Assembly (NCBI GenBank): GCA_017519045.1
Contig: JAFWTC010000041.1
Location: 1-64,000, forward strand
Origin: Candidatus Methanomethylophilaceae archaeon
GTDB lineage: Archaea; Thermoplasmatota; Thermoplasmata; Methanomassiliicoccales; Methanomethylophilaceae
DNA: 64,000 nucleotides
Direction of reading: 5' to 3'
Shown piece by piece: positions 30,050 to 50,002 of this stretch. The position numbers and the translations under genes were made by a program. Within the stretch, counting starts at the first letter, position 1; each line of letters opens with the position of its first letter. The notes under the pieces are model-generated. The model was given only the letters and a program-made list of their open reading frames with translations. It did no database searches and was not told the origin of the DNA.

Positions 30050-30121
30050 GCCTTCCGTATCGGAGAAGGAATAAGGTTGCTAGACTCCGGATTATTATAT
30101 GACGCGGTCGTTCGATGTCCG

Positions 30122-31312
30122 ATGACAGGCATGAGACTGGGACGGCGTCCGCTGATGCTCCTGATACTGCTCCTCAGCATGTTCGGGCCGCTGTCCACCG
30201 ACATGTACCTCTCCGGGCTCCCGGTGATGACGGTCGATTTCAGGACCACGGAGTCCGTGATGAACATGTCGCTGTACCTGTTCATGCTGGTCCTTTCCGT
30301 CAGCATCCTCGTTCTGGGGCCGATCAGCGACAAGTACGGGCGGAGGAACGTCTTGATGGCGTCGATGGCCCTGTACGCGGCGTCGAACGTCGCATGCTGC
30401 TTCACCGGCGACGTGCGCGTGTTCATCGCCTTGAGGATGGTGCAGGCGTTCGGCGGGGGAGGCGCCATGACCACGGCGTTCGCCCTGATCAAGGACTGCT
30501 TCGACGGGAACGACAGGAGCAGGGTGCTTTCGGTGACGGCGGCCATAGGCATCCTTGGGCCCATATTGGCGCCGGTCATCGGCACCGCCCTCATCAACGT
30601 GGCAGGGTGGCGCTCCACGTTCTGGTTCCCGGCTGGAGTCTCCGCCCTCTGCCTCCTGATGGGGTCGTTCCTTCCTGGATACCTCCCTGCCGACCGCTTC
30701 CAAGGCACCGTCCTCGGATCGATGGCCCGTCTCGCCGCCGTGACCCGCGACAGGAACTTCGTGGTGTTCGCGCTGATGATGTGCACGTTCACCGGGTCCC
30801 AGCTCGCATACATCTCGGTCTCGTCCTACGTGTACCAGGACGGGTTCGGACTCGATCCGACCGGTTACAGCCTCGTCCTGGCCTCCGCATGCGTCATGGG
30901 CCTCGTCATAGCGAGGGCGCTGTCCCGCGCCGTCTCCGCCTCTAGGAGGATGATACCCTGCGTGTTCGCCCTCGGGTTTCTCAGCTTTCTAATGATGCTT
31001 TTCCTAGCAGGACTCCATTGGGCCCTGTTCATGCTGTCCATAGTGCCATGCTGCGCGGTGACCATAACCGCCCGCTCGTTCGGATACGGGATCCTGATGA
31101 GCCAGCACGACGGGGACAACGGCTCCGTGTCCTCGGTGCTGAACTTCACGACCTTCATGTTCGCGTTCGTGGGCATGGTGCTGGCGTCGTCGTTCCCGCC
31201 GGACCTGTTCATATACGGGGTCGCGGCGATGTTGGCGATAAGCTGCGGAGTATACCTGGCCGGATGGGCGGCGATACGCGCGAGGGGGTACCCCCTCAAA
31301 GGATTGGAATGA
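30122..31312 (+). CDS. MFS drug-efflux transporter, Bcr/CflA type
   Basis: A 396-residue transporter with 12 predicted membrane segments. GPLSTDMYLSGLP in TM1, the loop GPISDKYGRRNV between TM2 and TM3, and TM5 GILGPILAPVIG with the PxxGxxL-like drug-antiport pattern place it in the Bcr/CflA multidrug group. The exported compound is unknown. ATG 30122 lies about 25 bases after TATA-like TTATTATATG (30090-30102). Transcribed away from the phospholipase-D pair. Confidence 0.9.
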   Translation: MTGMRLGRRPLMLLILLLSMFGPLSTDMYLSGLPVMTVDFRTTESVMNMSLYLFMLVLSVSILVLGPISDKYGRRNVLMASMALYAASNVACCFTGDVRVFIALRMVQAFGGGGAMTTAFALIKDCFDGNDRSRVLSVTAAIGILGPILAPVIGTALINVAGWRSTFWFPAGVSALCLLMGSFLPGYLPADRFQGTVLGSMARLAAVTRDRNFVVFALMMCTFTGSQLAYISVSSYVYQDGFGLDPTGYSLVLASACVMGLVIARALSRAVSASRRMIPCVFALGFLSFLMMLFLAGLHWALFMLSIVPCCAVTITARSFGYGILMSQHDGDNGSVSSVLNFTTFMFAFVGMVLASSFPPDLFIYGVAAMLAISCGVYLAGWAAIRARGYPLKGLE

Positions 31313-31335
31313 AGAAGAGGGGCCTCGCGGCGCCC

Positions 31336-32013
31336 TCAGATGTATTTGATGAGGTCCCTTAGGATGGTCTCGGGATCCTTGGCCTTGACTACCCCGGACG
31401 CCAGAAGGACTCCCTTCGCGCCGAGGTCGACGGCGGTCTTGACGTCCTCTCCGGTCTTCACACCGGCTCCGCAGAGCACCTCGATCCTGGGGTCGACCGA
31501 CCTGACGGCGTCCACGGTGTCGGTGACTATCCTGGGGTTGGCCGTCGTGACGGAGACGTCCCCCCCTATGAGCTCGGGAGGCTCCACCGCGATCATCCTC
31601 GGCGAGAACGCGGCCAGCTCCTTGGCCTTGTCGACGCTCTCGGCGCAGACGCAGGCGCAGAGGTCCAGGCTCTTGCACATGGAGACGCATTCACCGACGC
31701 TCTCGGCAGGCTGCCTGTTCTCGGAGTGGTTGATGAGGGTGCCGTACGCCCCGGAGGCCTTGACCGCGGAGGGTGTGGTGTACCCGGTCCCCGATCCGGG
31801 CTTCCTGGGATGGACGTTTTGGGAGAGGACCGGGATGTCCAGCTCCCTGGCGACCAGGGACAGCTCCACCATCGGCGGGCAGACCGCTATGCTCACTCCG
31901 GACTCCTCGGCGACCTCGCTGCAGATCCTGGCGAGGCGGAGGGCCCCTTCGCCCTCCACCTCGCCATAGACCTTGAAGTTGACTATCACCGAGGGGGCTC
32001 TGAGTTCAATCAA
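31336..32013 (-). CDS. tpiA: triosephosphate isomerase
   Basis: The short archaeal TPI of 225 residues: NFKVYGE (catalytic Lys), GTLINHSENR (catalytic His) and MIAVEPPELIGG (catalytic Glu), then CGAGVKTGEDV and GVLLASGVVKA for phosphate binding. Interconverts glyceraldehyde-3-P and dihydroxyacetone-P. Its ATG overlaps the end of the FBP aldolase/phosphatase gene by 8 bases, joining two successive gluconeogenic steps in one transcript. Confidence 0.96.
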   Translation of the reverse strand: MIELRAPSVIVNFKVYGEVEGEGALRLARICSEVAEESGVSIAVCPPMVELSLVARELDIPVLSQNVHPRKPGSGTGYTTPSAVKASGAYGTLINHSENRQPAESVGECVSMCKSLDLCACVCAESVDKAKELAAFSPRMIAVEPPELIGGDVSVTTANPRIVTDTVDAVRSVDPRIEVLCGAGVKTGEDVKTAVDLGAKGVLLASGVVKAKDPETILRDLIKYI

Positions 32014-33151
32014 GGTTCTCGAACCTCGACGTGAGCTCTTTGAGGACTTCGGGCCTGGAGGTGTACTCCATCTCCTCAGGACCGAGGATGGAGGGCATGA
32101 ACGGGCCCTGGCTCCTGATGAACCTGCTGGCCTTCACGGCGTTCATGCGCGCGAGGTCCCAGGTGTTGCCCTTGAAGAAGTCGACGGGTATGTGCTCTCC
32201 GCCTTTCGCGCCTATGGGCTCGAGGCCCTGGAGCTTGCCCTCGTTGAGCTGGAATCCGAGACAGCAGATTCTGGGGGGACCGTCGAAGTAGACGGGGTCG
32301 GAGTCCTCGGGGGAGCAGGGGTAGAACGCCCCGTAGTGGGAGCCCCTCATCCATCCGGCGACCAGCATGGTGGTGTTCATGAACGGCTGGAGGTACTCTC
32401 CGACGGAGGGAAGGCCGCTCTGGGCGCGGCATATGCAGACCGGGTCGTCCTTTCCGATGTATTTTCCTGCGGTGAGGTTGAGCTTGTCCGTGGAGACCAC
32501 GCACGCAGGCCCGATGCCTGCTCTCGAGCAGATCCTCTTGATGGCGTATCTGGAGGTGTCTCCGAGCAGCGAGAGGATGCTGAGGGTTTCCTCGGGCGAT
32601 TTCATGACGACCTTCTTGTGGCCGATGACGTCCTGGATCTCGACGTCGAATCCCTTCTTGGCCCTGGCGTCGACGACGAGGCCGGTGGTGGTGAACGGGT
32701 CGAGGAAAATCCTGCTCAGGGGGAGGGAGTACGCGGAGGGCTCGGTCTTGTCCGCCATGAAGAACAGGAGAGGCTCGGAGCCCCTCTCGACGAAGCTCAT
32801 CTCCGCGGAGCCGGGTCCTGCGCCCTTGACGTTTCCGGAGAACGCGTCCGTGAGGATGTCCTGGCCTGCGGCGTAGAGCTTCATGGATTTGGCGATCTTG
32901 GCGGCTTTCTGGAAGCATTCCCACGCTGCGCCATGAACGTCCTTGCTGCCAACGCCCTTGTAGTGGGTCATGTAGAGGTTTATATCGTCTCCCACGCGGG
33001 TGACGTAGAAGTCCTCGATGGTTCCCTGCTTCTGCGCATCGGCGAGTATCTCTTTGCTTGCCTCGAGCATGGAGGGGTGAGGGCGTGAATGGCCCACGAC
33101 GGATCCGACGTCCGCCTTGATGACTGAGACTGTGACTTTCTCTGCTGGCAT
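32006..33151 (-). CDS. fbp: fructose-1,6-bisphosphate aldolase/phosphatase
   Basis: The bifunctional archaeal gluconeogenic enzyme that makes FBP from triose phosphates and dephosphorylates it to fructose-6-P. SVIKADVGSVVGHSRPHP begins the metal-binding N-terminus. DDINLYMTHYKG, GPGSAEMSF, FLDPFTTTGLV, GWMRGSHYGAFYPCS and FDGPPRICCLGFQL are conserved blocks of the family. ATG 33151 is chosen because TTTAAA (33175-33180) lies about 27 bases before it; a GTG at 33160 would add three residues. About 381 residues, standard. Confidence 0.96.
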   Translation of the reverse strand: MPAEKVTVSVIKADVGSVVGHSRPHPSMLEASKEILADAQKQGTIEDFYVTRVGDDINLYMTHYKGVGSKDVHGAAWECFQKAAKIAKSMKLYAAGQDILTDAFSGNVKGAGPGSAEMSFVERGSEPLLFFMADKTEPSAYSLPLSRIFLDPFTTTGLVVDARAKKGFDVEIQDVIGHKKVVMKSPEETLSILSLLGDTSRYAIKRICSRAGIGPACVVSTDKLNLTAGKYIGKDDPVCICRAQSGLPSVGEYLQPFMNTTMLVAGWMRGSHYGAFYPCSPEDSDPVYFDGPPRICCLGFQLNEGKLQGLEPIGAKGGEHIPVDFFKGNTWDLARMNAVKASRFIRSQGPFMPSILGPEEMEYTSRPEVLKELTSRFENLD

Positions 33152-33286
33152 GCTTTTCACGTTTCCTTGGTCAGTTTAAAGCATACTCGGTATTAAGCAT
33201 TAGTGGGGACCGTCGACGTTTCTTAGGCGGCCCCCACGTCCGACAGTTATTTCAATAAACAAAGCAACACGGGTGCGGGCATCAAC

Positions 33287-34891
33287 ATGAAAGGCACAGG
33301 GTTGACCTTGACAGCCGCTGTTCTGGCGTTCGTCGCCGTTCTTTCGGCGGTCTGCGTCGCGGACGCGTCGGATGGCGCTTCCTCCGACGGCTATTCAGTG
33401 TATTCCGAGTGCGGAAGAACGGTCGGGGGCGGAGTCTCGTCCATGGTCGTCGGCGCGGAGGGATGGTCGGGAGCAGCCTACCTGACCGTCGACGTGGAGT
33501 ACGATGCCGACGTGATGACGCTGACGGAGCCAAACGTCCTGTGCGGCCTCGAGACTCGCGTGAACGAGGATTCCGAAGGTCTTTTCTCCATCACCTTGGC
33601 CTCGGGCGCGAGGCCCATCGAGGGAGACCTCTTCGAGCTCGTCTTCGACATCTCCGCAGACGCGGCCGAGGGCCAGTACCCCATGTTCGTGAGCGCGAGT
33701 GCGGTCGGAGGGGAACCCCGCGTGTCGTCCTCCGGGACCATGATGACCGTCGGACTCGCCCCCGGTGACGTCAACGGGGACGGCAGGGTCAGCGTCCTGG
33801 ACTCTTTGATACTCAGGAAGCATTTCGGAGGGGTTCCCGTCGAAGTCCCTATGAAGAACCTCGACGTCAACGGGGACGGCTCCTTGACCGATATGGATTC
33901 CCGGCTTCTGAAGAGGTATCTTGCAGGTGCCGACGTGGGGCTGTCCGATCCCGATTCCGGGACGGTCATGTTCCAGGATTCCGACACCGCGTTCGCGGTT
34001 TCAGGCGCATTCGTCGGGTACAAGGTGTTCCTCTATGGGAAGATGGCCGGCAAGGAGGTCGCCGACCTTGCAGGGACGACGATCAAGGTCTCCGAGGACG
34101 GAGGCTTCGTCATGCCGGCGGGAGGTCTTTGCACAGTCACCGATCCGATACCCGGGCCTGTCGGCAGTGGCAGCTATATCTGTCTCAGTCTGCTTCAACC
34201 CGAAGGCGTCGCTATCAAAGTCGATGGGACGGTGACGAACAATTTCATCGTGAACGTCACGGGAGGCTCCTCCACAGTGCTCATATCCGGGGCTTCTTTC
34301 GACACTACGGAAAATGAAGGGTCGTTCATAGTGTCGAAGGAAGGCAAAGACTACATCCTGTCTTGCATCACCAATGCAAGTCCCAGGTATTCCATCGATG
34401 GAAGCGGTCTTTCGATCGAGCTCGAGGTGACCGAGAGTCTGTCCAGCTATCTGTTCATGCTGTTCGTTGACAAGGACGCGGACCTGGGAAGCGGATACGT
34501 TCCTGCGATCGGGGACCATGCGAAATACAAGTTTTACCTGACTTCGACCCTGCTTCCGCTTGCTAGCATAGATCTCGAAGTCGTCGAAGTCCACGACGAC
34601 AGCTATGTCGTGGCGGTGAGCAGCAGCATCCTGGACGGCACTTCGTTAGTCTTGATTCCCAACGGGGTGCCGATCGTGGCGAAGCTGAACACCACGGGAA
34701 TGACGCCGTCTTCGACCGATAAGATCAATCGCAAGGCATGCAGCGGCTATGATGTCGATGTTCCAGGCCTGTCCAGTCTCAGGGTATGGGTGGAGGACGA
34801 TTCGAGCGTCGTGGTCAAGATCGAGACCTCGTTCAACGGCAGCAAGGTGATTCTCACCTTGAGCGATTATAGGACACAGGGTTTGTCGTGA
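33287..34891 (+). CDS. secreted cohesin-like + dockerin protein
   Basis: Signal peptide (TLTAAVLAFVAVLSAVCVADA) followed by a cohesin-like beta domain (residues about 40-150: VDVEYDADVMTL through DISADAAEGQYPMFVSA). A complete type I dockerin sits at about 160-215, with two calcium loops DVNGDGRVSVLD and DVNGDGSLTDMD, each followed by a helix. A further 310 residues are of unknown beta-rich type. Cohesin-dockerin pairs hold multi-protein cell-surface complexes together. The protein could link to itself or to others. AT-rich TTATTTCAATAAAC precedes ATG. It ends at a hairpin terminator and opens the accessory island. Confidence 0.82.
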   Translation: MKGTGLTLTAAVLAFVAVLSAVCVADASDGASSDGYSVYSECGRTVGGGVSSMVVGAEGWSGAAYLTVDVEYDADVMTLTEPNVLCGLETRVNEDSEGLFSITLASGARPIEGDLFELVFDISADAAEGQYPMFVSASAVGGEPRVSSSGTMMTVGLAPGDVNGDGRVSVLDSLILRKHFGGVPVEVPMKNLDVNGDGSLTDMDSRLLKRYLAGADVGLSDPDSGTVMFQDSDTAFAVSGAFVGYKVFLYGKMAGKEVADLAGTTIKVSEDGGFVMPAGGLCTVTDPIPGPVGSGSYICLSLLQPEGVAIKVDGTVTNNFIVNVTGGSSTVLISGASFDTTENEGSFIVSKEGKDYILSCITNASPRYSIDGSGLSIELEVTESLSSYLFMLFVDKDADLGSGYVPAIGDHAKYKFYLTSTLLPLASIDLEVVEVHDDSYVVAVSSSILDGTSLVLIPNGVPIVAKLNTTGMTPSSTDKINRKACSGYDVDVPGLSSLRVWVEDDSSVVVKIETSFNGSKVILTLSDYRTQGLS

Positions 34892-34899
34892 TTCCAAAC

Positions 34900-34924
34900 G
34901 CAGGGGCCGATCCCCTGCCTTTTT
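34900..34924 (+). terminator. hairpin plus T-run terminator
   Basis: GCAGGGG (34900-34906) and CCCCTGC (34912-34918) form a perfect 7-bp stem with loop CCGAT, followed directly by CTTTTT. It is the clearest terminator in the window, right after the dockerin gene. Confidence 0.75.
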
Positions 34925-35491
34925 CATGGTTCCTGCCCGTCCATGCGGGCGAACACCTTTCTTCTCACAGCCAGCGTCACCGAGAGTATCATAGATGCAC
35001 CGATCAGGTGTCCCAGGAGCAGCGACCAGAATATGGCTTGGAGGGAATGCTGGCCGGCGAGAAGAACAGGATGACGAGGACGGCGTTCCTCAGAACCGCG
35101 CATGCTACGGCGACTCCCGGGCGGGCGCATGAAGGTATCCGGAGCACAGGGGATTGACAGAGAAGAACGGCGCGTAGAGGCAGAGGACGGTCAGCGTGTA
35201 TGCCATGTCCGGCCTGTAGGCCTTCTCCCTTCTTCCGGTGCCGATCATCCTGGAAACGACCGCCGACGCCCCAACGCCCAGTCCGCTGCCGAGTCCGGCC
35301 ATTACGTTGTAGAGCGGGGTCACGAGCGCCACCGCCGCCAGCGGATCCACGCCCAGCCCGGAGCATCACGCCCTGTCCGCCAAGACGTTGGCCTGGGCGG
35401 CCAGCAAGGAGACGAGCATGGACATCGCCATGAACAGCAAGGCCCTCCTGGAATCGCCTAGGAGGACGTCGACCCTCCTCTCCCCGTCCAT
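34924..35491 (-). pseudogene. remnant of a MATE-family efflux transporter
   Basis: Pieces of one MATE protein lie in different minus-strand frames. The start (MDGERRVDVLL, LLFMAMSMLVSLLAAQANVLADRA) hits TGA near 35368, where the family usually has Trp before CSGLG. The frame then continues with DPLAAVALVTPLYNVMAGLGSG and VVSRMIGTGRREKA. It breaks in SGYLHAPARESP, jumps to VLRNAVLVILFFSPAS in another frame, and ends with AIFWSLLLGHLIGASMILSV in a third. Total length is under half of a normal MATE (about 450 residues). Large deletions plus frameshifts show a dead gene rather than recoding. Confidence 0.85.
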
Positions 35492-35569
35492 GCACCTCCG
35501 AGAGGACGGTCGTTAATAACTGTGACGTGCACGCGCCATGCTTAAATCGTACGGAAATGTGGATGCGCC

Positions 35570-36404
35570 ATGGATGGCATGGAGACGGTCAGGAGCTTGA
35601 TATTCGGAGCCGACGGCGGGGATTCCGAAGCCGCTGGGAGGCTCATCGCATTGAAGGATCACGAGGTCGCTGGACTGGATTGCGAGGAGGTGGAGAGGAT
35701 GGCCGCAGACGGAAGCCAATGGGCGGCGGTGCTCCTCGGCCGCATGAAGGAATGGGCGCTCGGGACGGACCATGACGACTCCGCCGCGGCCCGTCTGTAC
35801 GAGTCGGCGGCCAAGGACGGCAACGCCTATGCCATGGCGGCCCTGGGAAGGCTTTACGAGAGGGGAGAAGGGGTGCAGAAGTCCCTGCATCACGCCTATC
35901 TCCTGTATTCAGCGTCCTCGTCCCGCGGATGGGCGGCGGCCGACGAATGGCTCGCGAAGAACCGCGAGCGGGCCGAGGAGCTCGGACGCATAATCGACGG
36001 CGCGGATGCGGGGGATGCGGAATGCCAGTTCCTGCTGGCGAAGGCCTACGATGACGGCGAGGTCCTGGAGCATTCCGAGGATCGCGCGGTGAACCTTTAC
36101 GCCAAGTCCGCGGACCAGGGCTACGCTCCTGCGGCTTACGAGATCGCCCGCCGCTGCGAGTACGGAGACGGGATCCGTGAGTCGATGCGCACCGCCATCC
36201 ACATGCATGTGGCATTGGCGGACTCGGGTTTCCAGGCCTCGGCCGACAGGTTGGCAGGCATGGACTTGGAGGAGCTGGAGATGGCCGACATCGGCATCCT
36301 TTCCAGAATGTCGGAGGCCGGGTCCGAATGGGCCGGGAGGGTTCTCAGCAGGCTGTCCCGCGCGAACCGAACGGTTTTTCGTTCAGAGCGACCATCGGAC
36401 GGGC
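35570..36404 (+). CDS. Sel1-repeat protein
   Basis: A soluble helical-repeat protein. Sel1/TPR-like units are visible as SAAKDGNAYAMAALGRLYERGEGVQKSLHHAYLLY-type sequence and KSADQGYAPAAYEIARRCEYGDGI. Sel1 repeats bind other proteins; the partner is unknown. TATA-like GCTTAAATC lies about 27 bases before ATG 35570. As sequenced the frame runs on to 36820, but the run of five T at 36375-36379 is suspicious. With one more T the protein would stop at TGA 36406-36408, exactly overlapping the GTG start of the next gene. The end given here reflects that reading. Confidence 0.65.
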
Positions 36405-37751
36405 GTGAGCAGGACGGACAGGTTCTTGGAGCTCTTCGCGCTGGGCGACGTGGATCCTTCCCGCATCGCCCCGTTGATGCGGTTCGGAGGGTTCGACGAT
36501 TTCGACGTCTACCTAGTCGAGACGGCCTCCGGCGCATCTCCGGACGATTTCGCGGCAGCGATCTCCGACCCCGATGCGGACAGGGCCTCCCAGGCCACGG
36601 TCAGGCTGCTCTCCAGGATGCCGTCGGGAGCAGGCCTGGCAGGCCTGATCCAAGACATGAGGCGGGCCTCCGGCCTTTCTGCCCTGAAGGTGGCGGACGA
36701 GGCCTCCGACACGAGGCAGGTCATCTGTCCCTTGGTCGCGGGAGGGAGGGTCCCGGACAAGGGCTCCATGGTCCGCATGGGGATCCCCGCCGGATACGCC
36801 TCGATGGTGGAATATGTTAACACCTTCTGCCCGAGGGAGCTTCGCGCCCTGGCATCGGAGACGGACGGGGCCGTCGTATCCGCGATGATCGACAGGATCT
36901 GCGAGGAAACGGGCCTGGATAGGCGCGCGGTCGCCGGGATGGCCGAGGACGTGTCTCCGGAAAAGAGGCCGGAGCCCCCGGAGAGCGTGGACAAAGGCCT
37001 TTCGTTCAAGAAATACCGGGTGTCGGAGGCCTTTGTGAAGAGATATTCCGGAGCATCTTCCGACGTGCGGATCCCCCGGACGGTCGACATCGGGGGAAGG
37101 ACGTGCGAGGTGGTCGGAATAGGTAGCGGCGCCTTCAACGGGAACGGAAGCATCCGTCGCGTGTCGATCCCAGACTCCGTGAGGGAGATCGGGCGGTATG
37201 CGTTCTTCAGATGCGGATTGCTGGAGCGCGTGGATCTTCCGGCCGGGCTGAAGGCCATCGGCGAGGGGGCGTTCTGCAAATGCGGCAGGCTGTCGCCCCC
37301 GTCGTTCCCCCGCGGCCTGGAGACTATCGGCCAGCAGGCCTTCCTCGGATGCGAGTCCTTCGACCGCGTGCTGGTGCCCAAGGAAGCCGTCCTGGGGCCT
37401 CATGCCTTCCCAGACGGTACTGCCGTCGTAAGGCGCCGATCAGACGTAGCGTCTCCTGATCTCCAGGGCCTGCTTGGCGCGGCTGGGAGATATCTTGGCG
37501 GCGGACGGGTCCTTGAGGTATTCCAGCACATCCTCGATCACCCCTATGTCCTTGGGATCCGCGGATTCGCGGAGCATCAGGAGCCTGACCTTGCGCCAGT
37601 CGTCGAAGGACCTCAGGGCGTACATGGCCTCGTCGGCCTCCTTTCCCGTCTTGCGGCTTCCGGCAGCTCCGGCGGCGCCTGCGGCGGGACAGCACTGGAG
37701 CACGTCCTTCTCGACGTTGGCGGGCATCTGGGAGAAGGACTCCCAGCATGA
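36405..37751 (+). CDS. BspA-type leucine-rich repeat protein
   Basis: From GTG 36405 (GTGA overlap with the Sel1 gene after the frameshift is corrected). Residues 1-205 are an unrecognised mostly helical region. Then come three to four LRR_5 repeats with the pattern IGSGAFNGNGSIRRVSIPDSV, IGRYAFFRCGLLERVDLP and IGEGAFCKCGRLSPPSFP. These occur in surface or host-interacting proteins and in intracellular proteins of gut microbes. No signal peptide is visible. The recognisable protein ends near base 37440. The rest of the frame, to 37751, is antisense to the AIPR gene and probably not native. Confidence 0.6.
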   Translation: MSRTDRFLELFALGDVDPSRIAPLMRFGGFDDFDVYLVETASGASPDDFAAAISDPDADRASQATVRLLSRMPSGAGLAGLIQDMRRASGLSALKVADEASDTRQVICPLVAGGRVPDKGSMVRMGIPAGYASMVEYVNTFCPRELRALASETDGAVVSAMIDRICEETGLDRRAVAGMAEDVSPEKRPEPPESVDKGLSFKKYRVSEAFVKRYSGASSDVRIPRTVDIGGRTCEVVGIGSGAFNGNGSIRRVSIPDSVREIGRYAFFRCGLLERVDLPAGLKAIGEGAFCKCGRLSPPSFPRGLETIGQQAFLGCESFDRVLVPKEAVLGPHAFPDGTAVVRRRSDVASPDLQGLLGAAGRYLGGGRVLEVFQHILDHPYVLGIRGFAEHQEPDLAPVVEGPQGVHGLVGLLSRLAASGSSGGACGGTALEHVLLDVGGHLGEGLPA

Positions 37752-39458
37752 CCTTCTGCGGCACTCCGTCACCACGTTCCCTCCGGCGTCGGAGATCCCC
37801 TTCAAGTATTCGGAAAACGTCTTGGCGGCGTCGACCGCATGGAACACCACCGGCGCAGGGGCGGACTGATTGTTCCAGATGTCCTCGAATCCCAGGACGC
37901 GTCCATTCTTGGCCAGGTCCGAGACGGTCTTGGACACGGCGTAGCAGCTTATCTGCGGCCTCAGATACCCGTCGAACCAGCTCTCGCGTCCGATGACGTC
38001 GTACACGGCCTCGTACAGGATGGCGGTCGCGACCGCCTCCTTGAAGTAATCGTCGCCGTACGCGGACGGGTTCTCCGAGAATCCCGTGGACACGTCGCGC
38101 GAGAAGAGGCTGTAGCAGGTCTGTCCTCCCCTGGAGACGGAGTCCGGGCGGAGCTCCAGCATGTATCTGTACCTGGCGAGGTCGATCTTGTCCATCTTGC
38201 GCTTCCTGTCGTAGGTCCTCTTGAACGCGGAGCGCTCCTGGTCCCCTCCCTTGGAGGAGTCCTGCTCGAACTGGCCCCTGGTGCGCTCATAGTACCACCT
38301 GAGGTCGCCGCCAGGTATCGTGCATCTGCGGGAGGCCTCCTCCATGGCCATCTGGAACCCGCTGCTGGACGTCAGGTCCGATTCCTTCACGGCGTTCGGC
38401 GTGTTGACGAACACGGATATGTTCCTGACGATGTCGAACGCGTCCTCGGACGGGACCACGACCAGCTTCATCGGGACGTAGATCTCGGACAGCTTGTCCT
38501 TGTACTTGCTCTTCAGCTCCTTGAAGAGGGAGACCGTGGTCTGGCCGCCGTTGACTATCTGCAGGTTCGTGAACGAGGTGATCCCCTGGTCGCCGATCTC
38601 CACCTCGGAGGCGGTCAGGGCCACCCCGTTGTTGTAGGCGAAGAACATCCCGGGGCATTCCCTGATCGTTTCGCGTATGCCCCTGTTGACCTTCGTCTTG
38701 ACGGTCAGGAACGAGCGGACGTTGGACTCTAGAAGCCTGCTGCCGTAGTCCCTGTAGATGAGCGCCAGGAACATTCCGGGGACGGTGCCGATGTACGAGG
38801 TGCATCCGTCGGACGACCCCGCCTTGACGCAGGGTATCGCCGAGTATCCGAAATCCGACACGCGGATGACGCGGTCGTCGTCGGGGCGGGAGGACCTCAG
38901 GGTGTCGGCTATGTACTCCATGTCTATCAGGCGGAACAGGATGAGCTTCCCTCCGAGGTCCCTCTCCCTGACCTCCTTGCATCTCGCGCTGCGGAGCCTG
39001 TCGGTGACCACGTAGACGAAGACGCGGTCGTAGCCGTCGTATCCTTCGCAGATGTTCCTGGCCAGCCTCGCTCCAGGCTCGTCGGACCCGGCCTTTATCT
39101 GGCCGTCCGCGGCCTCCTCGATGAAGGCGGCGCAGCGCTTGGAATGCTCTCCGAACTCCTTCTCCGTTATCCGGGGAGGGTCGTCCTCCCCCGAGAAGTC
39201 GCAGACGAACAGGCTCAGGGTGCGGTCGTTGAGGCCCCCGTCTCCGTCCGTATATGCGAATCCGTGGATCGCGATCGACTTGTTGTGCCTCCCGGTCCCG
39301 GAATATGCGCACGGCTCCGCCTCCGGACAGACGTCGAACGCCGCCATGTCCTTTGTGGCGGCGACCAGGAACCACTCCGACGGTGAGGCTCCGGCCGCTG
39401 ACGCATCCGCCTTGATGTTCTCGATGTATTGCCTGCGGAACGATTCGATGTCGTACAT
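37440..39458 (-). CDS. AIPR-family abortive-infection protein
   Basis: A 672-residue AIPR (abortive infection phage resistance) protein. The family core is visible: SFLTVKTKVNRGIRETI, PGMFFAYNNGVALTA, FTNLQIVNGGQTTVSLF, VRNISVFVNTPNAVKESDL and RWYYERTRGQF. AIPR proteins occur in phage-defence loci, where they are needed for protection; their biochemical activity is poorly known. The N-terminal 150 residues (VVTDRLRS, GGKLILF) look like an alpha/beta nuclease-type domain. It is the last gene of a three-gene operon, 13 bases after its neighbour. The converging LRR frame overlaps its 3' end. Confidence 0.88.
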   Translation of the reverse strand: MYDIESFRRQYIENIKADASAAGASPSEWFLVAATKDMAAFDVCPEAEPCAYSGTGRHNKSIAIHGFAYTDGDGGLNDRTLSLFVCDFSGEDDPPRITEKEFGEHSKRCAAFIEEAADGQIKAGSDEPGARLARNICEGYDGYDRVFVYVVTDRLRSARCKEVRERDLGGKLILFRLIDMEYIADTLRSSRPDDDRVIRVSDFGYSAIPCVKAGSSDGCTSYIGTVPGMFLALIYRDYGSRLLESNVRSFLTVKTKVNRGIRETIRECPGMFFAYNNGVALTASEVEIGDQGITSFTNLQIVNGGQTTVSLFKELKSKYKDKLSEIYVPMKLVVVPSEDAFDIVRNISVFVNTPNAVKESDLTSSSGFQMAMEEASRRCTIPGGDLRWYYERTRGQFEQDSSKGGDQERSAFKRTYDRKRKMDKIDLARYRYMLELRPDSVSRGGQTCYSLFSRDVSTGFSENPSAYGDDYFKEAVATAILYEAVYDVIGRESWFDGYLRPQISCYAVSKTVSDLAKNGRVLGFEDIWNNQSAPAPVVFHAVDAAKTFSEYLKGISDAGGNVVTECRRRSCWESFSQMPANVEKDVLQCCPAAGAAGAAGSRKTGKEADEAMYALRSFDDWRKVRLLMLRESADPKDIGVIEDVLEYLKDPSAAKISPSRAKQALEIRRRYV

Positions 39459-39471
39459 TGTAAGAACCCCG

Positions 39472-40605
39472 TTAACTCGAATATGCGCCCCAGACCGCCC
39501 CTAGACAGCGCTCCGTCTCCGCCGCGACGCGTTCGGTGACGTCGGGGCCGGGATCGGACAGCGCCGACACGCATTTCCAGTCGATTCCTCTGGCGCTGAG
39601 GAACGGCTTCACCCTTTCCATGGGGGCCGAGCGGATCTTGCGGCCAAGCGCAACCACCCTGGCCGACTCCGGTATGTCGTGGTCCCTCATCTGGAACGCG
39701 GCCTCGTCGCAGAGCCTGGGGATGAGAACCAGCGTCAGGGCGCTTCCGTCTTTGGATGCGCGGCACATGCTGCACATGCTGTCCGACCAGACGCGGGACA
39801 CGGCGTACCCTCCGGATTCAAGCGCGGACATGTAAATCGCCTCGGCGGCCGCGAAGGCGAAGCTCTCAGGGACCCCTTGGGCGTCGGCGCGGCCCTCGGG
39901 CCTGCCTATCCTGTCAAAGGGGAAAGTCTTGGAGCACATCGGGGAGACCGTCGGGTTGCCATAGGGGTCCCTGGCCACGATCACCTTGCCGCCGTAGGCC
40001 TCCACGGCCCAATCGGGGCATCTGAGCACGCGTCCGGCCGAGGTCCTGGGTGCGAGGAACCCCGACATGAATCCGTCTTCCGGAATCCTGGACGGCACGG
40101 GTATGGCGGCGCATTTGGAGCAGAGGTCCTCGTCATCTATGTGGATCTCGAACGGGGACGTCATGGAGAACGGGATCTTGAGACCCGACAGGACGGAGGT
40201 GCAGCGGCTCATCACGTCCCAGTCCTCGGACACGAACCTGATCCTGCCGTCCTCCGCGGAGGCGAGAAGGCCGTCCGCGAAGCTGTCGCCGGTGACCGGG
40301 ACGTATCCCGGGGCGGGTTTCGCGGACGATAGCAGCCTCGAGGCCATCGCGTCCGATATCCTCATCGGGACGCGGACGGGACTGTGGGGGACGCTGCGGA
40401 CGGGCTCCGATATTCCGCACGAGACCGATCCGCCGTCGTTGGAGACCAGGTCGAACGGTCCGACGACGCGGCCGTCCGAGTACAGCAAGATCTTGGAGAC
40501 GCCGTCGTAGACCGTGGAAGGCTGTTGGGACCTGTCCTGGATGCGTCCTTTGTAGAGGAACGACGTGAGGATCCCGTCTTCTGCCGGTATCACGAGGTAG
40601 ACCAT
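39472..40605 (-). CDS. unknown protein in AIPR operon
   Basis: A 377-residue protein I do not recognise. ATG 40605 is preceded by GGAGGGGGA, a strong ribosome site, and lies within the last codons of the upstream gene (16-base overlap), so the two are coupled. The N-terminus (MVYLVIPAEDGILTSFLYKGR) suggests a beta-rich domain. A central pair CSKCAA, plus DSMCSMCRASKDGSALTL further on, could bind zinc. The C-terminal third (FAAAEAIYMSALESGGYAV to SALTLVLIPRLC) has an alternating pattern like a restriction-endonuclease-type fold, but no catalytic motif is certain. The larger open frame to 41337 is an overlap artefact. Stop is TAA. Confidence 0.8.
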   Translation of the reverse strand: MVYLVIPAEDGILTSFLYKGRIQDRSQQPSTVYDGVSKILLYSDGRVVGPFDLVSNDGGSVSCGISEPVRSVPHSPVRVPMRISDAMASRLLSSAKPAPGYVPVTGDSFADGLLASAEDGRIRFVSEDWDVMSRCTSVLSGLKIPFSMTSPFEIHIDDEDLCSKCAAIPVPSRIPEDGFMSGFLAPRTSAGRVLRCPDWAVEAYGGKVIVARDPYGNPTVSPMCSKTFPFDRIGRPEGRADAQGVPESFAFAAAEAIYMSALESGGYAVSRVWSDSMCSMCRASKDGSALTLVLIPRLCDEAAFQMRDHDIPESARVVALGRKIRSAPMERVKPFLSARGIDWKCVSALSDPGPDVTERVAAETERCLGAVWGAYSS

Positions 40606-41459
40606 CGGATCCCCCTCCTGCGGAGGTCGCACATGTACTCCAGCATCGACTCCACGCGTCCGTTGCCTTCCTGTTCGAAGTAATGCGAGAACGGGACGAC
40701 GTCCTCCTTCAGGAAGCAGTCCACGGAGTCCTTCCCTATCAGTATGTCGCAGTCCAGGCCGCTCTTCTCGGCTATCGACGATTCGTCCGCTATCGGGCCG
40801 TACGTGAATTCCAGGCCTTTGAAGTCCGCCTTGCCCTTTCCCATGGGCGTCACCCCGTCGCATTCGGCCATGACGAGGTCCAACAGCCTCAGCAGGACCT
40901 TCTCGCGCATCGCCATGTGTATCTTCGACACATCCGACGCCGTCGCAGGCGAGGCGGACGCGCTGTACGCGATCATCGTCGACGGGTCCTCCGTCCTGGG
41001 CTTCCCCTAGCACTCGCAGTACGAGGCGCACAGCCATCTCCAGTGCCCGGAGTATTCGTCGCGGATCCATTCCGCGTCCTCGGCGGTGCTGCACATGGAT
41101 AGCGACTTGGAGAACGAGCGCAGCTCGGGCGACCCCGAGAGGCGGTACATCCCGTCCGACTCGTACACGATGTATCCTTCCTTGGACAAAGCCCGGAGGG
41201 TCTCCTTGAACTTGGGCACCACGGTGAGGAAGGCGCTGGATGCGGGCCCGTCGCAGAGGGTGTCGATGACGAAGGTCTTGCGCGCCTCCGCGTCGTCTTT
41301 CATCTCGGCCCACGCGGCGCTGACCTTCGCATGGCATTCGGGACAGAGTATCAGCGGGTCCGTTCCCATGCTGTTATAGCATTCCTCCGGGTCCACGGAG
41401 GTGCCGCAGCGGTCACACACCAGTCTATGCGCGGACTTACGGGCGGAAACGTCTACCAT
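40590..41459 (-). CDS. zinc-ribbon protein with in-frame TAG, first gene of AIPR operon
   Basis: From ATG 41459, preceded by a TATA box at about 27 bases, a four-Cys zinc ribbon appears first (CDRCGTSVDPEECYN and LCPECHAK). A winged-helix-like segment (ALSKEGYIVYESDGMYRLSG) and an Arg/Trp-rich stretch follow, ending SYCEC. Codon 151 is TAG (41009-41007). The same frame continues with ten codons and then a folded-looking region (KVLLRLLDLVMAECDGV, FEQEGNGRVESMLEYMCDLRRRG), ending in TGA at 40590. Read through, it is a 289-residue protein coupled by overlap to the next gene. Alternatively a downstream ATG at 40976 starts a separate protein. Confidence 0.7.
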
Positions 41460-41478
41460 GCTTTTACTTCTCCGACCT

Positions 41479-41490
41479 TGTATAAAATCC
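41479..41490. promoter_or_regulatory. shared TATA box between AIPR operon and Sel1 gene
   Basis: TGTATAAAATCC on the plus strand, reading GGATTTTATACA on the minus strand. It is spaced about 25 bases before ATG 41459 of the AIPR operon. It could also serve the plus-strand Sel1 gene at 41592 with an untranslated leader. Confidence 0.5.
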
Positions 41491-41591
41491 TTAGCCGTAA
41501 TGGAGGACCTGGTCAATTCGAATTCTGCCTCTGTGGCGTGTCATGGCGGTGCAGGCGGGATGCGGCTGGTTCGAGGTGGCGTCCGGTGATT

Positions 41592-43616
41592 ATGTTTATC
41601 AATGACGCCGGCGATTCGCAATCGTCCATTCTGAGGGGCGGCGCAGGCGGCACGGCGTTCCGTCATGCGTCTGACGGGTTTTCGAGCAGATACGAGGATG
41701 TGCAGGCGAGAGGGCATATGCAGAACGATCGCGGCCGCAAGAGGACTCCCGAATCGGCGAAGGGGGAGGCGGATTCCTTCTACAGGCTTGGGAGGAACTA
41801 CGAAAGCGGGAAGGGCGTGAAGCAGTCCTACGAATCCGCGGTGGAATGCTATGCCAAGGCTGCCGCCATGGGGCACAGCCGCGCCATCCACAGCCTGGGA
41901 AAATGCTATTTCAACGGCAACGGGGTCCCGAAATCCAGGGAGAACGCCGTCGCCTTGTATCTGAAGGCGGCGGAGCTGGGCAACTCCTACGCCATGCATA
42001 GCCTCGCCAAATGCTACGAGGGCGGGAAGGGCGTCGAGAGGTCGTACGAGAAGGCCGTAGAATGGTACAGGAAGGCGGCGGAGCTGGGCAACTCCTACGC
42101 GATGCACAGCCTCGGCGAGTGCTACGAGAAGGGGAAGGGCGTGAAGCAGTCCTACGACGAGGCTGTCAAATGGTACAGGAAGGCGGCCGACCTGGGGGAC
42201 GCGAGGTCCGTCAGCAACATGGGCGACTGCTACTGCTTCGGGCACGGCGTCGAGAGGTCGTACGAGAAGGCGGTCGAATGGTACAGGAAGGGGATAAAGC
42301 TCGGCGACTCCTACTCCATAAACGGCCTGGCCTGGTGCTTCTACCACGGCAAGGGCGTGGAGCAGTCCTACGACCAGGCGCTGGCCTTGTACAGGGCCGC
42401 GGCCGACCTGGGAAACACCTATGCGATGCACAGCATAGGGAGCTGCTACTTCTACGGCCACGGGGTCCCCGTGTCCTTCGAGAAGGCAGCCGAGTGGTAC
42501 GGCAAGGCGGCGGACCTCGGGAACGCGTACGCGATCCACAGCCTCGGCTGGTGCTACATCAACGGCAAGGGCGTCGAGAAATCCTATGAGAAGGCCGTGA
42601 AGCTCTATGAGAAGGCCGCGGAGATCGGGAACAGCTACGCCATGCATGGGTTGGGCTGGTGCTACGAGAACGGCAAGGGCGTCAAGAAGTCCTACGCGGA
42701 GGCCTTCAGATGGTACTATGATGCGGCCGAGATGGGGAACGTGTACGCCATGCACAGCCTCGGCGAGTGCTACGAGAAGGGGAAGGGCGTGGAGCAGTCG
42801 TACAAGAACGCCGTCGAATGGTACAGGAAGGCGGCCGACCTGGGCGACGTGAAGTCGATGAGCAACCTCGGCGAGAGCTACTACTACGGCCGCGGGGTCC
42901 CGCAGTCGTACGAGGACGCCATAGGGTGGTACACCCGCGGCATGGAGCAGGGCAACACGTTCTGCATGTACAGCCTCGGCTGGTGTTACTATTACGGCAA
43001 GGGCCTGGAGCAATCGTACGAGAAGGCGGCCGAGTGGTACAGGAAGGCGGCCGACCGTGGAAACGGGTACGCCATGTACGGCCTGGGCTGGTGCTACTAT
43101 TACGGAAGGGGAATAGCCCAGTCCTACGAGAAGGCGGCCGAGTGGTACTCCAGGTCGGCGGAGCTCGGCAACTCGTACGCGATGTACAGCCTGGGATGGT
43201 GCTACGAGAACAGCAGGGGCGTGGAGCAATCGTACGAGAAGGCGGCCGAGTGGTACTCCAGGTCGGCGGAGCTCGGCAACTCGTACGCGATGTACAGCCT
43301 GGGCGAGTGCTACTATTACGGGCGCGGCGTGGGGCAGTCCGACGACATGGCGATCAAGTGGTACATCAAGGCTTCCGAGATGAGCGCGAGCCGCAACATG
43401 CTGAGGGACGAGGCTTACGACGCGGAGATGAAGGACGACCTCATCCGATCCGGTCGTGCCGGTTCCGGGAGGGAGTCGACGTACGACGCCCACGAGATCA
43501 TGTCCTTGAACTCTATGGAGTCGCCTTCGTGCATGTTGAACAGGATCTTCTCGCATTCGACGAGTATCCTCTCCAGCTCGTTCTTTATGTCCTCGGGTAT
43601 CTTCCCGGCCGTGTAA
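41592..43616 (+). CDS. large Sel1-repeat protein (15 repeats)
   Basis: After about 60 non-repetitive residues there are 15 consecutive Sel1 units, each exactly 36 residues. The consensus has NSYAMHSLGxCY, GKGVxxSYEKA and WYRKAA. Such solenoids are protein-binding scaffolds; no signal peptide or enzyme domain is present, so it is probably cytosolic. Repeats 14 and 15 are nearly identical at DNA level, and units 4-6 resemble units 10-12, showing stepwise growth by duplication. The true protein probably ends near base 43460. The remaining frame to TAA at 43616 is antisense to a small gene. It diverges from the AIPR operon. Confidence 0.85.
   Translation: MFINDAGDSQSSILRGGAGGTAFRHASDGFSSRYEDVQARGHMQNDRGRKRTPESAKGEADSFYRLGRNYESGKGVKQSYESAVECYAKAAAMGHSRAIHSLGKCYFNGNGVPKSRENAVALYLKAAELGNSYAMHSLAKCYEGGKGVERSYEKAVEWYRKAAELGNSYAMHSLGECYEKGKGVKQSYDEAVKWYRKAADLGDARSVSNMGDCYCFGHGVERSYEKAVEWYRKGIKLGDSYSINGLAWCFYHGKGVEQSYDQALALYRAAADLGNTYAMHSIGSCYFYGHGVPVSFEKAAEWYGKAADLGNAYAIHSLGWCYINGKGVEKSYEKAVKLYEKAAEIGNSYAMHGLGWCYENGKGVKKSYAEAFRWYYDAAEMGNVYAMHSLGECYEKGKGVEQSYKNAVEWYRKAADLGDVKSMSNLGESYYYGRGVPQSYEDAIGWYTRGMEQGNTFCMYSLGWCYYYGKGLEQSYEKAAEWYRKAADRGNGYAMYGLGWCYYYGRGIAQSYEKAAEWYSRSAELGNSYAMYSLGWCYENSRGVEQSYEKAAEWYSRSAELGNSYAMYSLGECYYYGRGVGQSDDMAIKWYIKASEMSASRNMLRDEAYDAEMKDDLIRSGRAGSGRESTYDAHEIMSLNSMESPSCMLNRIFSHSTSILSSSFFMSSGIFPAV
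43125..43303 (+). repeat. recent 108-base duplication inside Sel1 gene
   Basis: A 71-base block (43125-43195) recurs without change at 43233-43303, offset by exactly 108 bases (one 36-residue repeat). Confidence 0.85.
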
Positions 43617-43744
43617 GCGGCTTCTATGCGGGGGCCCAGCGGGCCAATCTCCTCCCCTCCGAACTTCTTGAGGTACAGCTCCATCTTCGAGCGTATCTGC
43701 GTGGCGGTGGCGATGGCCTTGAAACTAGTGCACGGGACCAGCAT
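43415..43744 (-). CDS. small protein of unknown function
   Basis: A 109-residue protein with a helical centre (KNELERILVECEKILFNMHEG) and an N-terminal hydrophobic/aromatic segment. I do not recognise the family. ATG 43744 was preferred over 43765 because ACTTAAAG (about 43770-43777) is a TATA box at the right distance. This promoter and the sensible amphipathic composition argue it is real. It overlaps the tail of the converging Sel1 frame by 202 bases. Confidence 0.5.
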   Translation of the reverse strand: MLVPCTSFKAIATATQIRSKMELYLKKFGGEEIGPLGPRIEAAYTAGKIPEDIKNELERILVECEKILFNMHEGDSIEFKDMISWASYVDSLPEPARPDRMRSSFISAS

Positions 43745-43840
43745 GATGGCGTGAGCGAGCGTCATTCTACTTTAAGTTTGGGTCTTGCGCCATGACGGCG
43801 CCCGATGCCCGCTTTCCGTTCTGACATTCGCATTGCGAGG

Positions 43841-43850
43841 CTATTATCTA
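43841..43850 (+). promoter_or_regulatory. TATA box of cobN-like gene
   Basis: CTATTATCTA lies about 26-35 bases before ATG 43876, predicting a leaderless or near-leaderless mRNA. Confidence 0.5.
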
Positions 43851-43875
43851 TGATGGACGTTACTTCCAACGTCCT

Positions 43876-46800
43876 ATGAAATCCGTATCATTGCTTTACT
43901 TGGCAACTTCCAATCAGATCGACATGATGGGCCGCTCCGCCTCAAGGCATCCCGAGGTGGAGGTCAGCTCGTACAACCTCGCCCGCATGGCCGTGTCGGA
44001 GATACCGGCGGAGGGGGATCCGCCCGACATCGTCCTGGTCATGCTCCCGGTGGTGGCCTCTCTCGACGACATGAAGGACTTCCTCCGCAGGCGGAATCCA
44101 GGCATGGTGGTGTCCGTCGGAAAGGATCCGCGGCTCTGGACGCTCAACACTGTTCCCAAGGAGAAGGCCCTGCGCGTGTACGAGTACCTGTCGAACAGCG
44201 GACAGGACAACTACGACGGCGCCTTGGACTACATTCTGTCCGAGTTCGCGGGATTCGACCTCGTCCCTTCGCCGCCCAGGGGGCTTCCCATGCACGGGCT
44301 GGTCGACCTCACCCGTCCAGGCGAGGTCTACGGCTCCCTGGAGGAGTACAAGTCCGGCCGCGGATGGGACGAGTCCAGCCCTTCGGTGTGCTTCTCGGTT
44401 TCAAGGGAGGCCTGGATGTCCGGCAACTTCGGCATGCGCAGGTTCCTTTTCGAATGCATGGAGGAGGCCGGCCTGAACGCGGTGGCGGTCATGTCGAAGC
44501 CGAGGGACGACCCCGCCTTGGGGGCGTGGGGCCTGACGACCACGATGTACAACCTCCTTACGGACCGCGGGGATCCCAAAGTGGACGCATTCATCGCTAA
44601 CTCCTACATGCAGTATGACGTCATGGGGGCTGATGGGAAGGTCATGAGCGAGGCGGAGCTCGTGGCCAGGATGAACGTACCGGTGTTCTGTCCTATGGAC
44701 CTCCGCTCCATGACCATGGAGGAATGGGAGGCCTCTCCCGGAATAGGGCAGATGTCCGCCTCCAGGATAGTCGTGCCGGAGCTCAAGGGGTTCATCGAGC
44801 CGATTCCGATGAGCGTGATGGAGGACCGCTCCCCCTTGGCCGACTACATACCGATCGAGGACAGGTGCCGCCGCATCGCATCCAGGATCCGGAGGCGCGC
44901 CATGCTTCGCCGGATCCCCAACGGGGACAGGACGGTCGTGTTCGTGCTGAACATCGGCGCCTGCTCCACCGTGGAGGCCACACTGGGGCTCGCCCACGGG
45001 CTGGATTCGATGGAGAGCGTCGTCCGCATAATGGCCGCGATGAAGGAGGACGGTTATCGCTTCGACGTCCCGGAATCCGGAGAGGCGCTGAGGGAGATGA
45101 TAGTGTCCCGCCGCGCCTATCCGGAGTTCAGATGGACCTCGGTGTCTGAGACAGTCTCCAAGGGAGGCGTCCTTTATCGCATGGGGAGGGACGAGTACGC
45201 TTCGATGTTCGGCACCTTGGGGAGCAAGACCAGGGAGGGCGTCGTCAGGGTGTGGGGCGAGCCACCGGGCGAGGGCATGACGGACGGCAACGACCTGATC
45301 ATCCCGGGCGTCCGTCTGGGGAACGCCTACGTGATCGTCCAGCCCAAGCGGGGATGCGTCGGCAGGGAGTGCAGCGGGAAGAAGTGCAAGGTCCTGACGG
45401 ATCCGTGCTGCCCTCCGAACCACCACTACATAGCCACGTACCTCTACCTCGACCGCGTCATGAAGGCCGACATGATGATCGGCATGGGGTCGCACGGGAC
45501 CTTGGAGCATCTTCCTGGCAAGTCCAACGGCCTGAGCGGCGACTGCTATCCGGACGTCTGCGTCGGGTCGCTTCCCAATTTCTATGTATTCAATGCCTGC
45601 GACTCGGCGCATGCCACGATAGCAAAGCGCAGGGCGTATGCGACCATGTTCGGCCACGCTCCCGCGAGGACCGCGCCCATGGAGCTGTCGCAGGACATGA
45701 GGGCCCTCATAGATCACGTGGGAAGCTTCGATCCGGACAACGAGGGCGAGGCATACCGCGCCTCCTTTTCCGAGAGGCTGGACGAGCTGGCATCGGCCGC
45801 CGGCATGGTCATCCCTGGGTCTCTGGGCGAGGCCTTGGACCGCAAGGTCGGAAGGGCCAGGGACCTTCTGGACTCCGCCGCGTCCTCCTTCGTGGAGCTC
45901 GGCGCCCACGTGTTCGGGGAGGCGCCCTCCGAGGAGGAGATGGCCGACGTCCTATACGCCTCGGAGGCCGACGGCGCCACCGACGGCCTGGAGGATGCGG
46001 TGAAGGCGGCGGTATCGGGAAGTGCGTCGTCCGATCTGGAGCGCAGGCTGCTTGCCCTGGCCGATTCCATGCGTGCAAGCGACGAGATGGGCTCCTTGAT
46101 GAACGCCGCCTCGGGAGGCTTCACCGCGCCGGGGCCGGCCGGGAACCTCGTCAGGGGGAAGACGGCGATATACCCCACCGGTCGCAACCTGTACGGCTCC
46201 AACCCGGACATGTATCCGACCAGGACGTCGTATCTTGTCGGCTGCGATCTCGCCGACCGTCTGCTGGAAGCTTACCGCGAAGAGCACGGCCGCTTCCCGG
46301 AGGAGGTGGCGCTGTCATGGATGAGCAACGATCTGGCCATCGCCGGAGGCGAGATGATCGGACAGGTGATGTCGCTCATCGGAGTCGAGCCGACGTGGTC
46401 CTCCGACGGGAAGGCGGAGGGCTTCAGCATAATCCCCGCCGAGAGGCTGGCCCATCCGCGCATAGACGTCCTCATCCGTCCCGCCGGCACCGTCCTGTCC
46501 GTCTACAGGAGCCGTATCGACCTCTTGGACAGGGCCATCGCGGCGGTGGCGGATCTGGACGAGCCTCCCGACGTGAATTACGTCCATGCCCATGCGATGG
46601 ATTCCGTCAGGGCGGGGGCATCCGCGGACGAGGCCTCCTCTAGGATATTCGGCGCGGGCGCCGGGATGTCCTCCGGGCTCTTCTATGCCATTATGGCTTC
46701 GGCATGGGAGAAGGACTCCGACCTGGCCGGGATCTTCATGAGCAACAATGGATACGCGTACGGCTCCGGGAAGGACGGGGTGCCCATGCACGGGCAGTTC

Positions 46801-49953: not shown

Positions 49954-50002
49954 ATCGCCACATGTCCAGCAGATGCCGGATGATAAGCCTTTTCAGCGTT
50001 TT

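What the first reader, a model, noticed from the sequence alone, without database searches (positions are those of the whole stretch)
37440..41459. Three-gene AIPR operon: possible undescribed defence system
Seen: one TATA box, then zinc-ribbon/winged-helix protein (with TAG), an unrecognised Cys-containing 377-residue protein, and a 672-residue AIPR protein, coupled by a 16-base overlap and a 13-base gap. It is flanked by Sel1 and LRR genes and a dead transporter. Known: AIPR proteins take part in abortive infection and in multi-gene restriction-like loci with Z1-domain, methylase and ATPase partners. None of those partners is here, so the composition seems different from the AIPR loci I know.
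Basis: partly seen in the sequence, partly recalled or inferred. Interest (0 to 1): 0.85.

Follow-up and report, generated by a model that had tools for sequence, protein, structure and literature searches.

The report
MzaE-type AIPR operon without Mza partners
A gut archaeon and six relatives carry a conserved three-gene operon in which a phage-defence-type protein (AIPR), elsewhere found with a fixed set of DNA-processing partners, is coupled instead to two proteins unknown outside this group; it may be a stripped-down, lineage-specific antiviral system, but no function has been tested.

Summary
Window 37440-41459 (-) holds three coupled genes: a zinc-ribbon/winged-helix protein with an in-frame TAG (g1), an orphan 377-aa protein (g2) and a 672-aa AIPR protein. 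The host is a rumen Methanomethylophilaceae archaeon with PylS. The operon recurs in six other genomes of the genus (7 of 31 in all), with a TATA box 27-28 nt before g1 wherever readable, conserved order, purifying selection, and linked Sel1 and DUF4145-like genes. g1 and g2 were found nowhere else (390 Thermoplasmatota genomes, GTDB-220 pattern scan, viral contigs, plasmids). The AIPR is an MzaE relative. The twelve related full-length AIPR loci I read sit beside Z1 and mostly a MutL/MORC-like ATPase and PD-(D/E)XK protein; these seven do not, and form one clade (100/100) on a long branch among Mza-linked AIPRs. Antiviral function is inferred only. g2's N-terminus looks YTH/PUA-like in a low-confidence model. 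Against mobility: the block is inherited within one subclade at one site, often beside the 16S rRNA gene. Verdict: a lineage-restricted variant of the Mza/AIPR kind, probably defence (about 0.5).

The parts
37440..39458 (-). AIPR protein, 672 aa, MzaE-type (AIPR_N + AIPR domains)
   Evidence: Pfam PF10592 1.4e-71, PF22879 4.7e-21; PADLOC MzaE 1.6e-65; NCBIfam MzaE 299 bits, under its 1050-bit equivalog cut-off; core motifs NVRSFL, YNNG, NGGQTT, WYYERTRGQ kept
39472..40605 (-). g2: orphan 377-aa protein; N-terminal third possibly PUA/YTH/EVE-like fold; C-terminal third of unknown fold
   Evidence: no Pfam, PADLOC, NCBIfam or PHROG match; AlphaFold mean pLDDT 62; Foldseek best hit YTH domain, prob 0.99, E 0.018, and MJECL36, prob 0.85; conserved in 7 genomes
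40590..41459 (-). g1: 289-residue protein: N-terminal CxxC...CxxC zinc ribbon, winged-helix-like middle, C-terminal beta-rich domain; in-frame TAG
   Evidence: invariant C15, C18, C39, C42 in six homologues; model pLDDT 77; wHTH-type Foldseek hits BlcR prob 0.89 and SqrR prob 0.80, none with E below 0.06
41007..41009 (-). in-frame TAG codon of g1, probably read as pyrrolysine
   Evidence: homologues have V/Q/V/Q/R; sequence after it stays conserved; PylS in the genome
41481..41486 (-). TATA element (TTTATA), 27 nt before the g1 start codon; suggests a leaderless transcript
   Evidence: same kind of element at -27/-28 in six of six loci
41733..43514 (+). divergent Sel1-repeat gene, conserved neighbour (exact start and end not determined)
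   Evidence: 15 Sel1 repeats; 61-72% identity at the same place in five other genomes
43418..43735 (-). DUF4145-like small protein, conserved neighbour, convergent with the Sel1 gene
   Evidence: Pfam DUF4145 E 0.0056, below cut-off; 57-66% orthologues only beside this operon
35570..37451 (+). Sel1 and BspA-type LRR genes to the left, conserved neighbours but faster changing
   Evidence: 31-42% identity at the same place in L027, L028, L029, L034; LRR_5 in the L027 copy

Best explanation
The operon encodes a lineage-specific, Mza-derived antiviral module. Shown: an MzaE-type AIPR protein, with its core motifs intact, stands without Z1, MutL/MORC ATPase or PD-(D/E)XK protein and is stably coupled to g1 and g2. 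Inferred: g2 is the sensor, using a YTH/PUA-like N-terminal domain to recognise altered (for example modified) nucleic acid; the AIPR protein is the effector, whose DndB/ParB-like NGGQTT core acts on nucleic acid or nucleotides and kills or halts the infected cell; g1, a zinc-ribbon winged-helix protein, is the DNA-binding regulator, probably of its own leaderless promoter. The Sel1 and DUF4145-like neighbours may scaffold or modulate it.
For: AIPR is an MzaE relative; mzaABCDE is called a validated defence system in PMC9523054. Full MzaBCDE occurs in the same genus, in G020 and, besides this operon, in G026. The seven AIPRs are one clade, 100/100, among Mza-linked AIPRs. Z1 partners occur at all twelve related full-length AIPR loci read (seven Thermoplasmatota; five plasmids) and at none of the seven. 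g1, g2 and AIPR are always together where contigs reach. All three are under purifying selection yet change far faster than a control (dN/dS 0.08-0.45 against 0.02-0.04 for FBPase), g2 fastest in protein identity, as expected of a conflict gene. A YTH domain is the top fold hit for g2; YTH/EVE domains read modified bases and in archaea are tied to restriction (PMC7641849). A published analysis places DndB's N-terminal domain in the AbiU1/AIPR family (PMC3506569).
Against: No experiment. No transfer to other lineages; no match for g2 in viral contigs, plasmids or phages, or for g1 in viral contigs or plasmids. Vertical inheritance at one site, often beside 16S rRNA, is unusual for defence. g2's model is poor (pLDDT 62), its fold hits have E above 0.01, and sequence searches give no PUA match. 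No tryptophan is invariant in its N-terminal domain, so no aromatic cage is evident.
Confidence: 0.48

Rival explanations
1. Domesticated stress or regulatory operon. The AIPR was captured from an Mza locus and put to a cellular use, for example control of growth, with g1 as the transcription regulator.
For: Consistent with one gain in one subclade, fixed site, vertical inheritance; the block ends next to the 3' end of the 16S gene in four genomes; Sel1 and DUF4145-like partners are not classic defence genes.
Against: Genes change far faster than a housekeeping control; not found in 24 of 31 genomes of the genus, so dispensable; in the window the 16S neighbour is absent.
Confidence: 0.27
2. 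Toxin-antitoxin-like addiction module: the AIPR or g2 is a toxin, g1 the antitoxin and autoregulator, with no specific antiviral role.
For: Tight coupling and overlap of genes, DNA-binding-type first gene, conserved promoter at fixed spacing.
Against: Three large proteins, no plasmid or viral copies of g1 or g2, no repeated transfer.
Confidence: 0.15
3. Decaying remnant: a former Mza locus that lost its partners, with g1 now broken by a true stop codon.
For: Mza ancestry, missing partners, TAG in g1, and another TAG late in the AIPR of G029.
Against: Purifying selection on all genes, conservation after the TAG as high as before it, intact g1 in the five other genomes that show it, PylS present.
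Confidence: 0.07

Closest known systems
Mza system (MzaABCDE)
   Same: AIPR is MzaE-type over most of its length (32-37% identity to the genus's own Mza AIPRs), same core motifs; AIPR is the last gene of the set in both
   Different: no MzaB ATPase, no MzaC Z1 protein, no MzaD PD-(D/E)XK protein, no methylase; two unrelated partners instead; g2 shows no profile similarity to MzaD
Z1/PD-(D/E)XK/methyltransferase candidate systems type II with AIPR (PMC9523054)
   Same: AIPR present; a putative transcriptional regulator is reported as an associate
   Different: the core Z1, PD-(D/E)XK and methyltransferase genes are absent here
AbiU / other AIPR abortive infection proteins
   Same: AIPR core (PADLOC AbiU 2.2e-23)
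   Different: the AbiU match covers only residues 215-400; g1 and g2 match nothing in that library
EVE/YTH modified-base readers of archaeal restriction systems
   Same: best-supported fold hits of g2 include a YTH domain and MJECL36
   Different: no sequence match, low-confidence model, no McrB-type GTPase and no conserved nuclease motif

Membership tests
AIPR protein family (PF10592) | profile match over the gathering score | tested here: met
   242 bits against a cut-off of 25
AIPR protein family (PF10592) | core motifs shared with Mza AIPRs (NVRxFL, YNNG, NGGQTT, W(Y/F)YER) | tested here: met
   kept in all seven three-gene AIPRs
Mza system | MzaE-type AIPR | tested here: inconclusive
   PADLOC MzaE 1.6e-65 but NCBIfam equivalog 299 bits against 1050 needed; the genus's true Mza AIPR also misses that cut-off (345 bits)
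Mza system | MzaB MutL/MORC-type ATPase next to it | tested here: not met
   no tblastn match in window, contig end L107 or carrier loci
Mza system | MzaC Z1 protein | tested here: not met
   none in window or carrier loci; not tested genome-wide
Mza system | MzaD PD-(D/E)XK protein | tested here: not met
   none by tblastn; g2 against a 12-sequence MzaD profile: probability under 1%
EVE/YTH/PUA-like modified-base reader (g2 N-terminus) | PUA-like fold | tested here: inconclusive
   YTH prob 0.99 but E 0.018, target TM 0.46; MJECL36 prob 0.85, target TM 0.51; no sequence match
EVE/YTH/PUA-like modified-base reader (g2 N-terminus) | binding of modified bases | not testable with these tools
   needs biochemistry
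Prokaryotic antiviral defence system | protection against virus infection | not testable with these tools
   needs an infection assay
Prokaryotic antiviral defence system | conserved multi-gene association | tested here: met
   seven genomes, one subclade of one genus
Prokaryotic antiviral defence system | mobility or defence-island context | tested here: not met
   same site and neighbours in carriers; carriers cluster in an FBPase tree (two changes of state)

The most novel reading that the evidence does not exclude
A previously undescribed archaeal antiviral system in which an Mza-derived AIPR effector is directed by a new modified-nucleic-acid sensor (g2) and controlled by a zinc-ribbon regulator whose synthesis in some species depends on pyrrolysine read-through, so that defence is tied to the cell's Pyl supply.
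Probability: 0.1. Interest if true: 0.8.

Novelty: new variant of a known kind. Interest (0 to 1): 0.5.

Why it matters
What AIPR proteins do is poorly understood, partly because in Mza loci they come with large ATPase, Z1 and nuclease partners. A natural minimal set of three genes with the same AIPR core would let the effector be studied without them. It also adds a candidate defence type to gut methanogens, whose immunity is little studied (a 2026 survey of archaeal immunity does not mention Mza or AIPR in its main text), and two protein families that current libraries do not hold.

Tried and rejected
g2 as a diverged MzaD: hhalign against 2 and 12 MzaD sequences gave probability under 1%. 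g2's C-terminal third as a PD-(D/E)XK nuclease: weak Foldseek hits to Holliday junction resolvases (prob 0.57, 0.35) and I-Ssp6803I (prob 0.33), but no ExK is conserved in the alignment; not claimed. g1 and g2 in viral contigs and plasmids, g2 in phages: none. TAG as the boundary of two genes: rejected, since homologues run straight through it; the TGA stops first listed inside homologues are their true C-terminal ends. HEPN nuclease motif Rx4-6H in the DUF4145-like protein: absent in all six. Sequence searches of the PDB for all three proteins found nothing credible. Foldseek of g2 against viral models gave no informative hit.

Full report
What is there. The three genes lie exactly where described, on the minus strand: g1 41459-40590, g2 40605-39472, AIPR 39458-37440. 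g1 and g2 overlap by 16 nt; g2 and AIPR are 13 nt apart. A TATA element stands 27 nt before the g1 ATG, and 27-28 nt before it in all five readable homologous promoters, which suggests a leaderless archaeal transcript (inference). The host is a 1.9-Mb genome whose relatives are rumen Methanomethylophilaceae/Methanomassiliicoccaceae MAGs.

The AIPR protein. It matches Pfam AIPR (1.4e-71) and AIPR_N, PADLOC MzaE (1.6e-65) and NCBIfam MzaE below the equivalog cut-off. It keeps the core motifs shared with Mza AIPRs of archaea and bacteria. In the AIPR_N domain the Mza AIPRs of the same archaeal family read IDGY or FDGY, while the six readable three-gene AIPRs read (I/V)HG(F/Y); the meaning is unknown.

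Conservation of the set. Searching 60 relatives gave close AIPRs in G001, G005, G017, G025, G026 and G029. g2 occurs in each of these and g1 in each whose contig reaches that far. All are in one genus: 7 of 31 genomes held, window included. Neither g1 nor g2 was found outside the genus in 390 genomes of the phylum by profile. A GTDB-220 pattern scan with g2, which finds mainly close relatives, gave only four known carriers. Viral contigs gave nothing, nor did plasmids or, for g2, phages. Identity to the window is 59-78% for AIPR, 34-49% for full-length g2 and 51-60% for g1. dN/dS is 0.08-0.34 (AIPR), 0.15-0.45 (g2), 0.15-0.34 (g1) against 0.02-0.04 for the neighbouring FBPase; several dS values are near saturation, so the numbers are rough.

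A larger block. The divergent Sel1 gene (61-72% identity) and a DUF4145-like gene (57-66%) sit at the same place in five other carriers, and to the left MATE and Sel1/LRR genes, and FBPase where the contig reaches, recur. The close form of the DUF4145-like gene occurs only beside this operon; other genomes of the genus have at best a 43% relative elsewhere. In four carriers the contig ends in the 3' end of the 16S rRNA gene just past the DUF4145-like gene (Rfam confirms rRNA in two). In the window a CobN gene follows instead, and Rfam finds no rRNA in window 30000-50000.

Origin. In a tree of 21 AIPR proteins the seven three-gene AIPRs form one clade (100/100) on a stem of 1.6 changes per site, inside a group with the Mza AIPRs of the same archaeal family (83/92 for that wider group; midpoint root). 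The twelve related full-length AIPR loci I read carry Z1, mostly with an ATPase and a PD-(D/E)XK protein: MzaBCDE in G020 and G026 by PADLOC, G127 and G119 by tblastn, G415 (Z1 by tblastn), G069 and G083 by reading, and ATPase, Z1, PD-(D/E)XK, AIPR in five annotated plasmids. More distant AIPRs, such as the one in G023, match only over the core and were not counted. No MzaB, MzaC or MzaD match exists in the window, its contig end or any carrier locus. The simplest history is one event, in this subclade, in which an Mza-type AIPR lost or left its partners. An FBPase tree groups the carriers with one non-carrier, G010, which is only 76% complete; one carrier clade is not rejected (p 0.148).

The TAG. 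All five homologues of g1 have a sense codon where the window has TAG, and identity after it (47-63%) is like that before it (49-56%). PylS is present above its cut-off. Borrel et al. 2014 describe Pyl decoding in this order and 16 extra predicted Pyl proteins in Ca. M. alvus (PMC4153887). A read-through Pyl codon is the likely reading; a recent nonsense change or an assembly error is not excluded. A second in-frame TAG, at another place, is in the AIPR of G029.

How it may work. g1 has four invariant cysteines (C15, C18, C39, C42) and a winged-helix-like middle, so a DNA-binding regulator is reasonable. g2 has no family; its model is poor (pLDDT 62), but the top PDB hit is a YTH domain (prob 0.99, E 0.018), and MJECL36 appears at prob 0.85. 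YTH/EVE domains read modified bases and in archaea are tied to restriction (PMC7641849). For AIPR, a published analysis links DndB to the AbiU1/AIPR family (PMC3506569), and related DGQHR/GmrS domains are placed in the ParB/Srx fold with NTPase or nuclease activity (PMC4619093). That the AIPR motif NGGQTT corresponds to DGQHR is my inference and was not tested. The proposed chain (g2 senses, AIPR acts, g1 regulates) is therefore inferred throughout; only the parts and their conservation are shown.

Verdict. Defence is the likeliest purpose because of the AIPR ancestry and the fast evolution, but vertical inheritance at a fixed site leaves a domesticated role open.

Noticed in passing
L028 14811, L029 15692, L030 6434, L031 4469: The block ends just before the 3' end of the 16S rRNA gene in four genomes, which explains why their contigs break there; in the window a CobN gene takes that place.
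   Followed up: partly
L028 8343-10358 (-): A second in-frame TAG (context AGG TAG ATC) late in the AIPR gene of G029, unrelated in position to the window's TAG in g1.
   Followed up: partly
L036 804-8014 and L035 1838-10531: MzaBCDE systems in two rumen archaea of the same genus, one also with Vsr and a cytosine methylase; G026 has both Mza and the three-gene operon.
   Followed up: yes
window 34930-35491 (-): MATE transporter decayed in the window, intact at the same place in L028 and L029.
   Followed up: yes
window 53037-54047 (+): An ATP-pyrophosphatase-like gene that sits next to FBPase in the non-carrier relatives G014 and G015 lies 20 kb from it in the window; carriers seem to have gained or rearranged this stretch.
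   Followed up: partly
L110 9701-15461 and L111 9428-15235: AIPR divergent from Z1 and a different GHKL-like ATPase (paraMORC-like by reading), a variant of the Mza arrangement in the same archaeal family.
   Followed up: no
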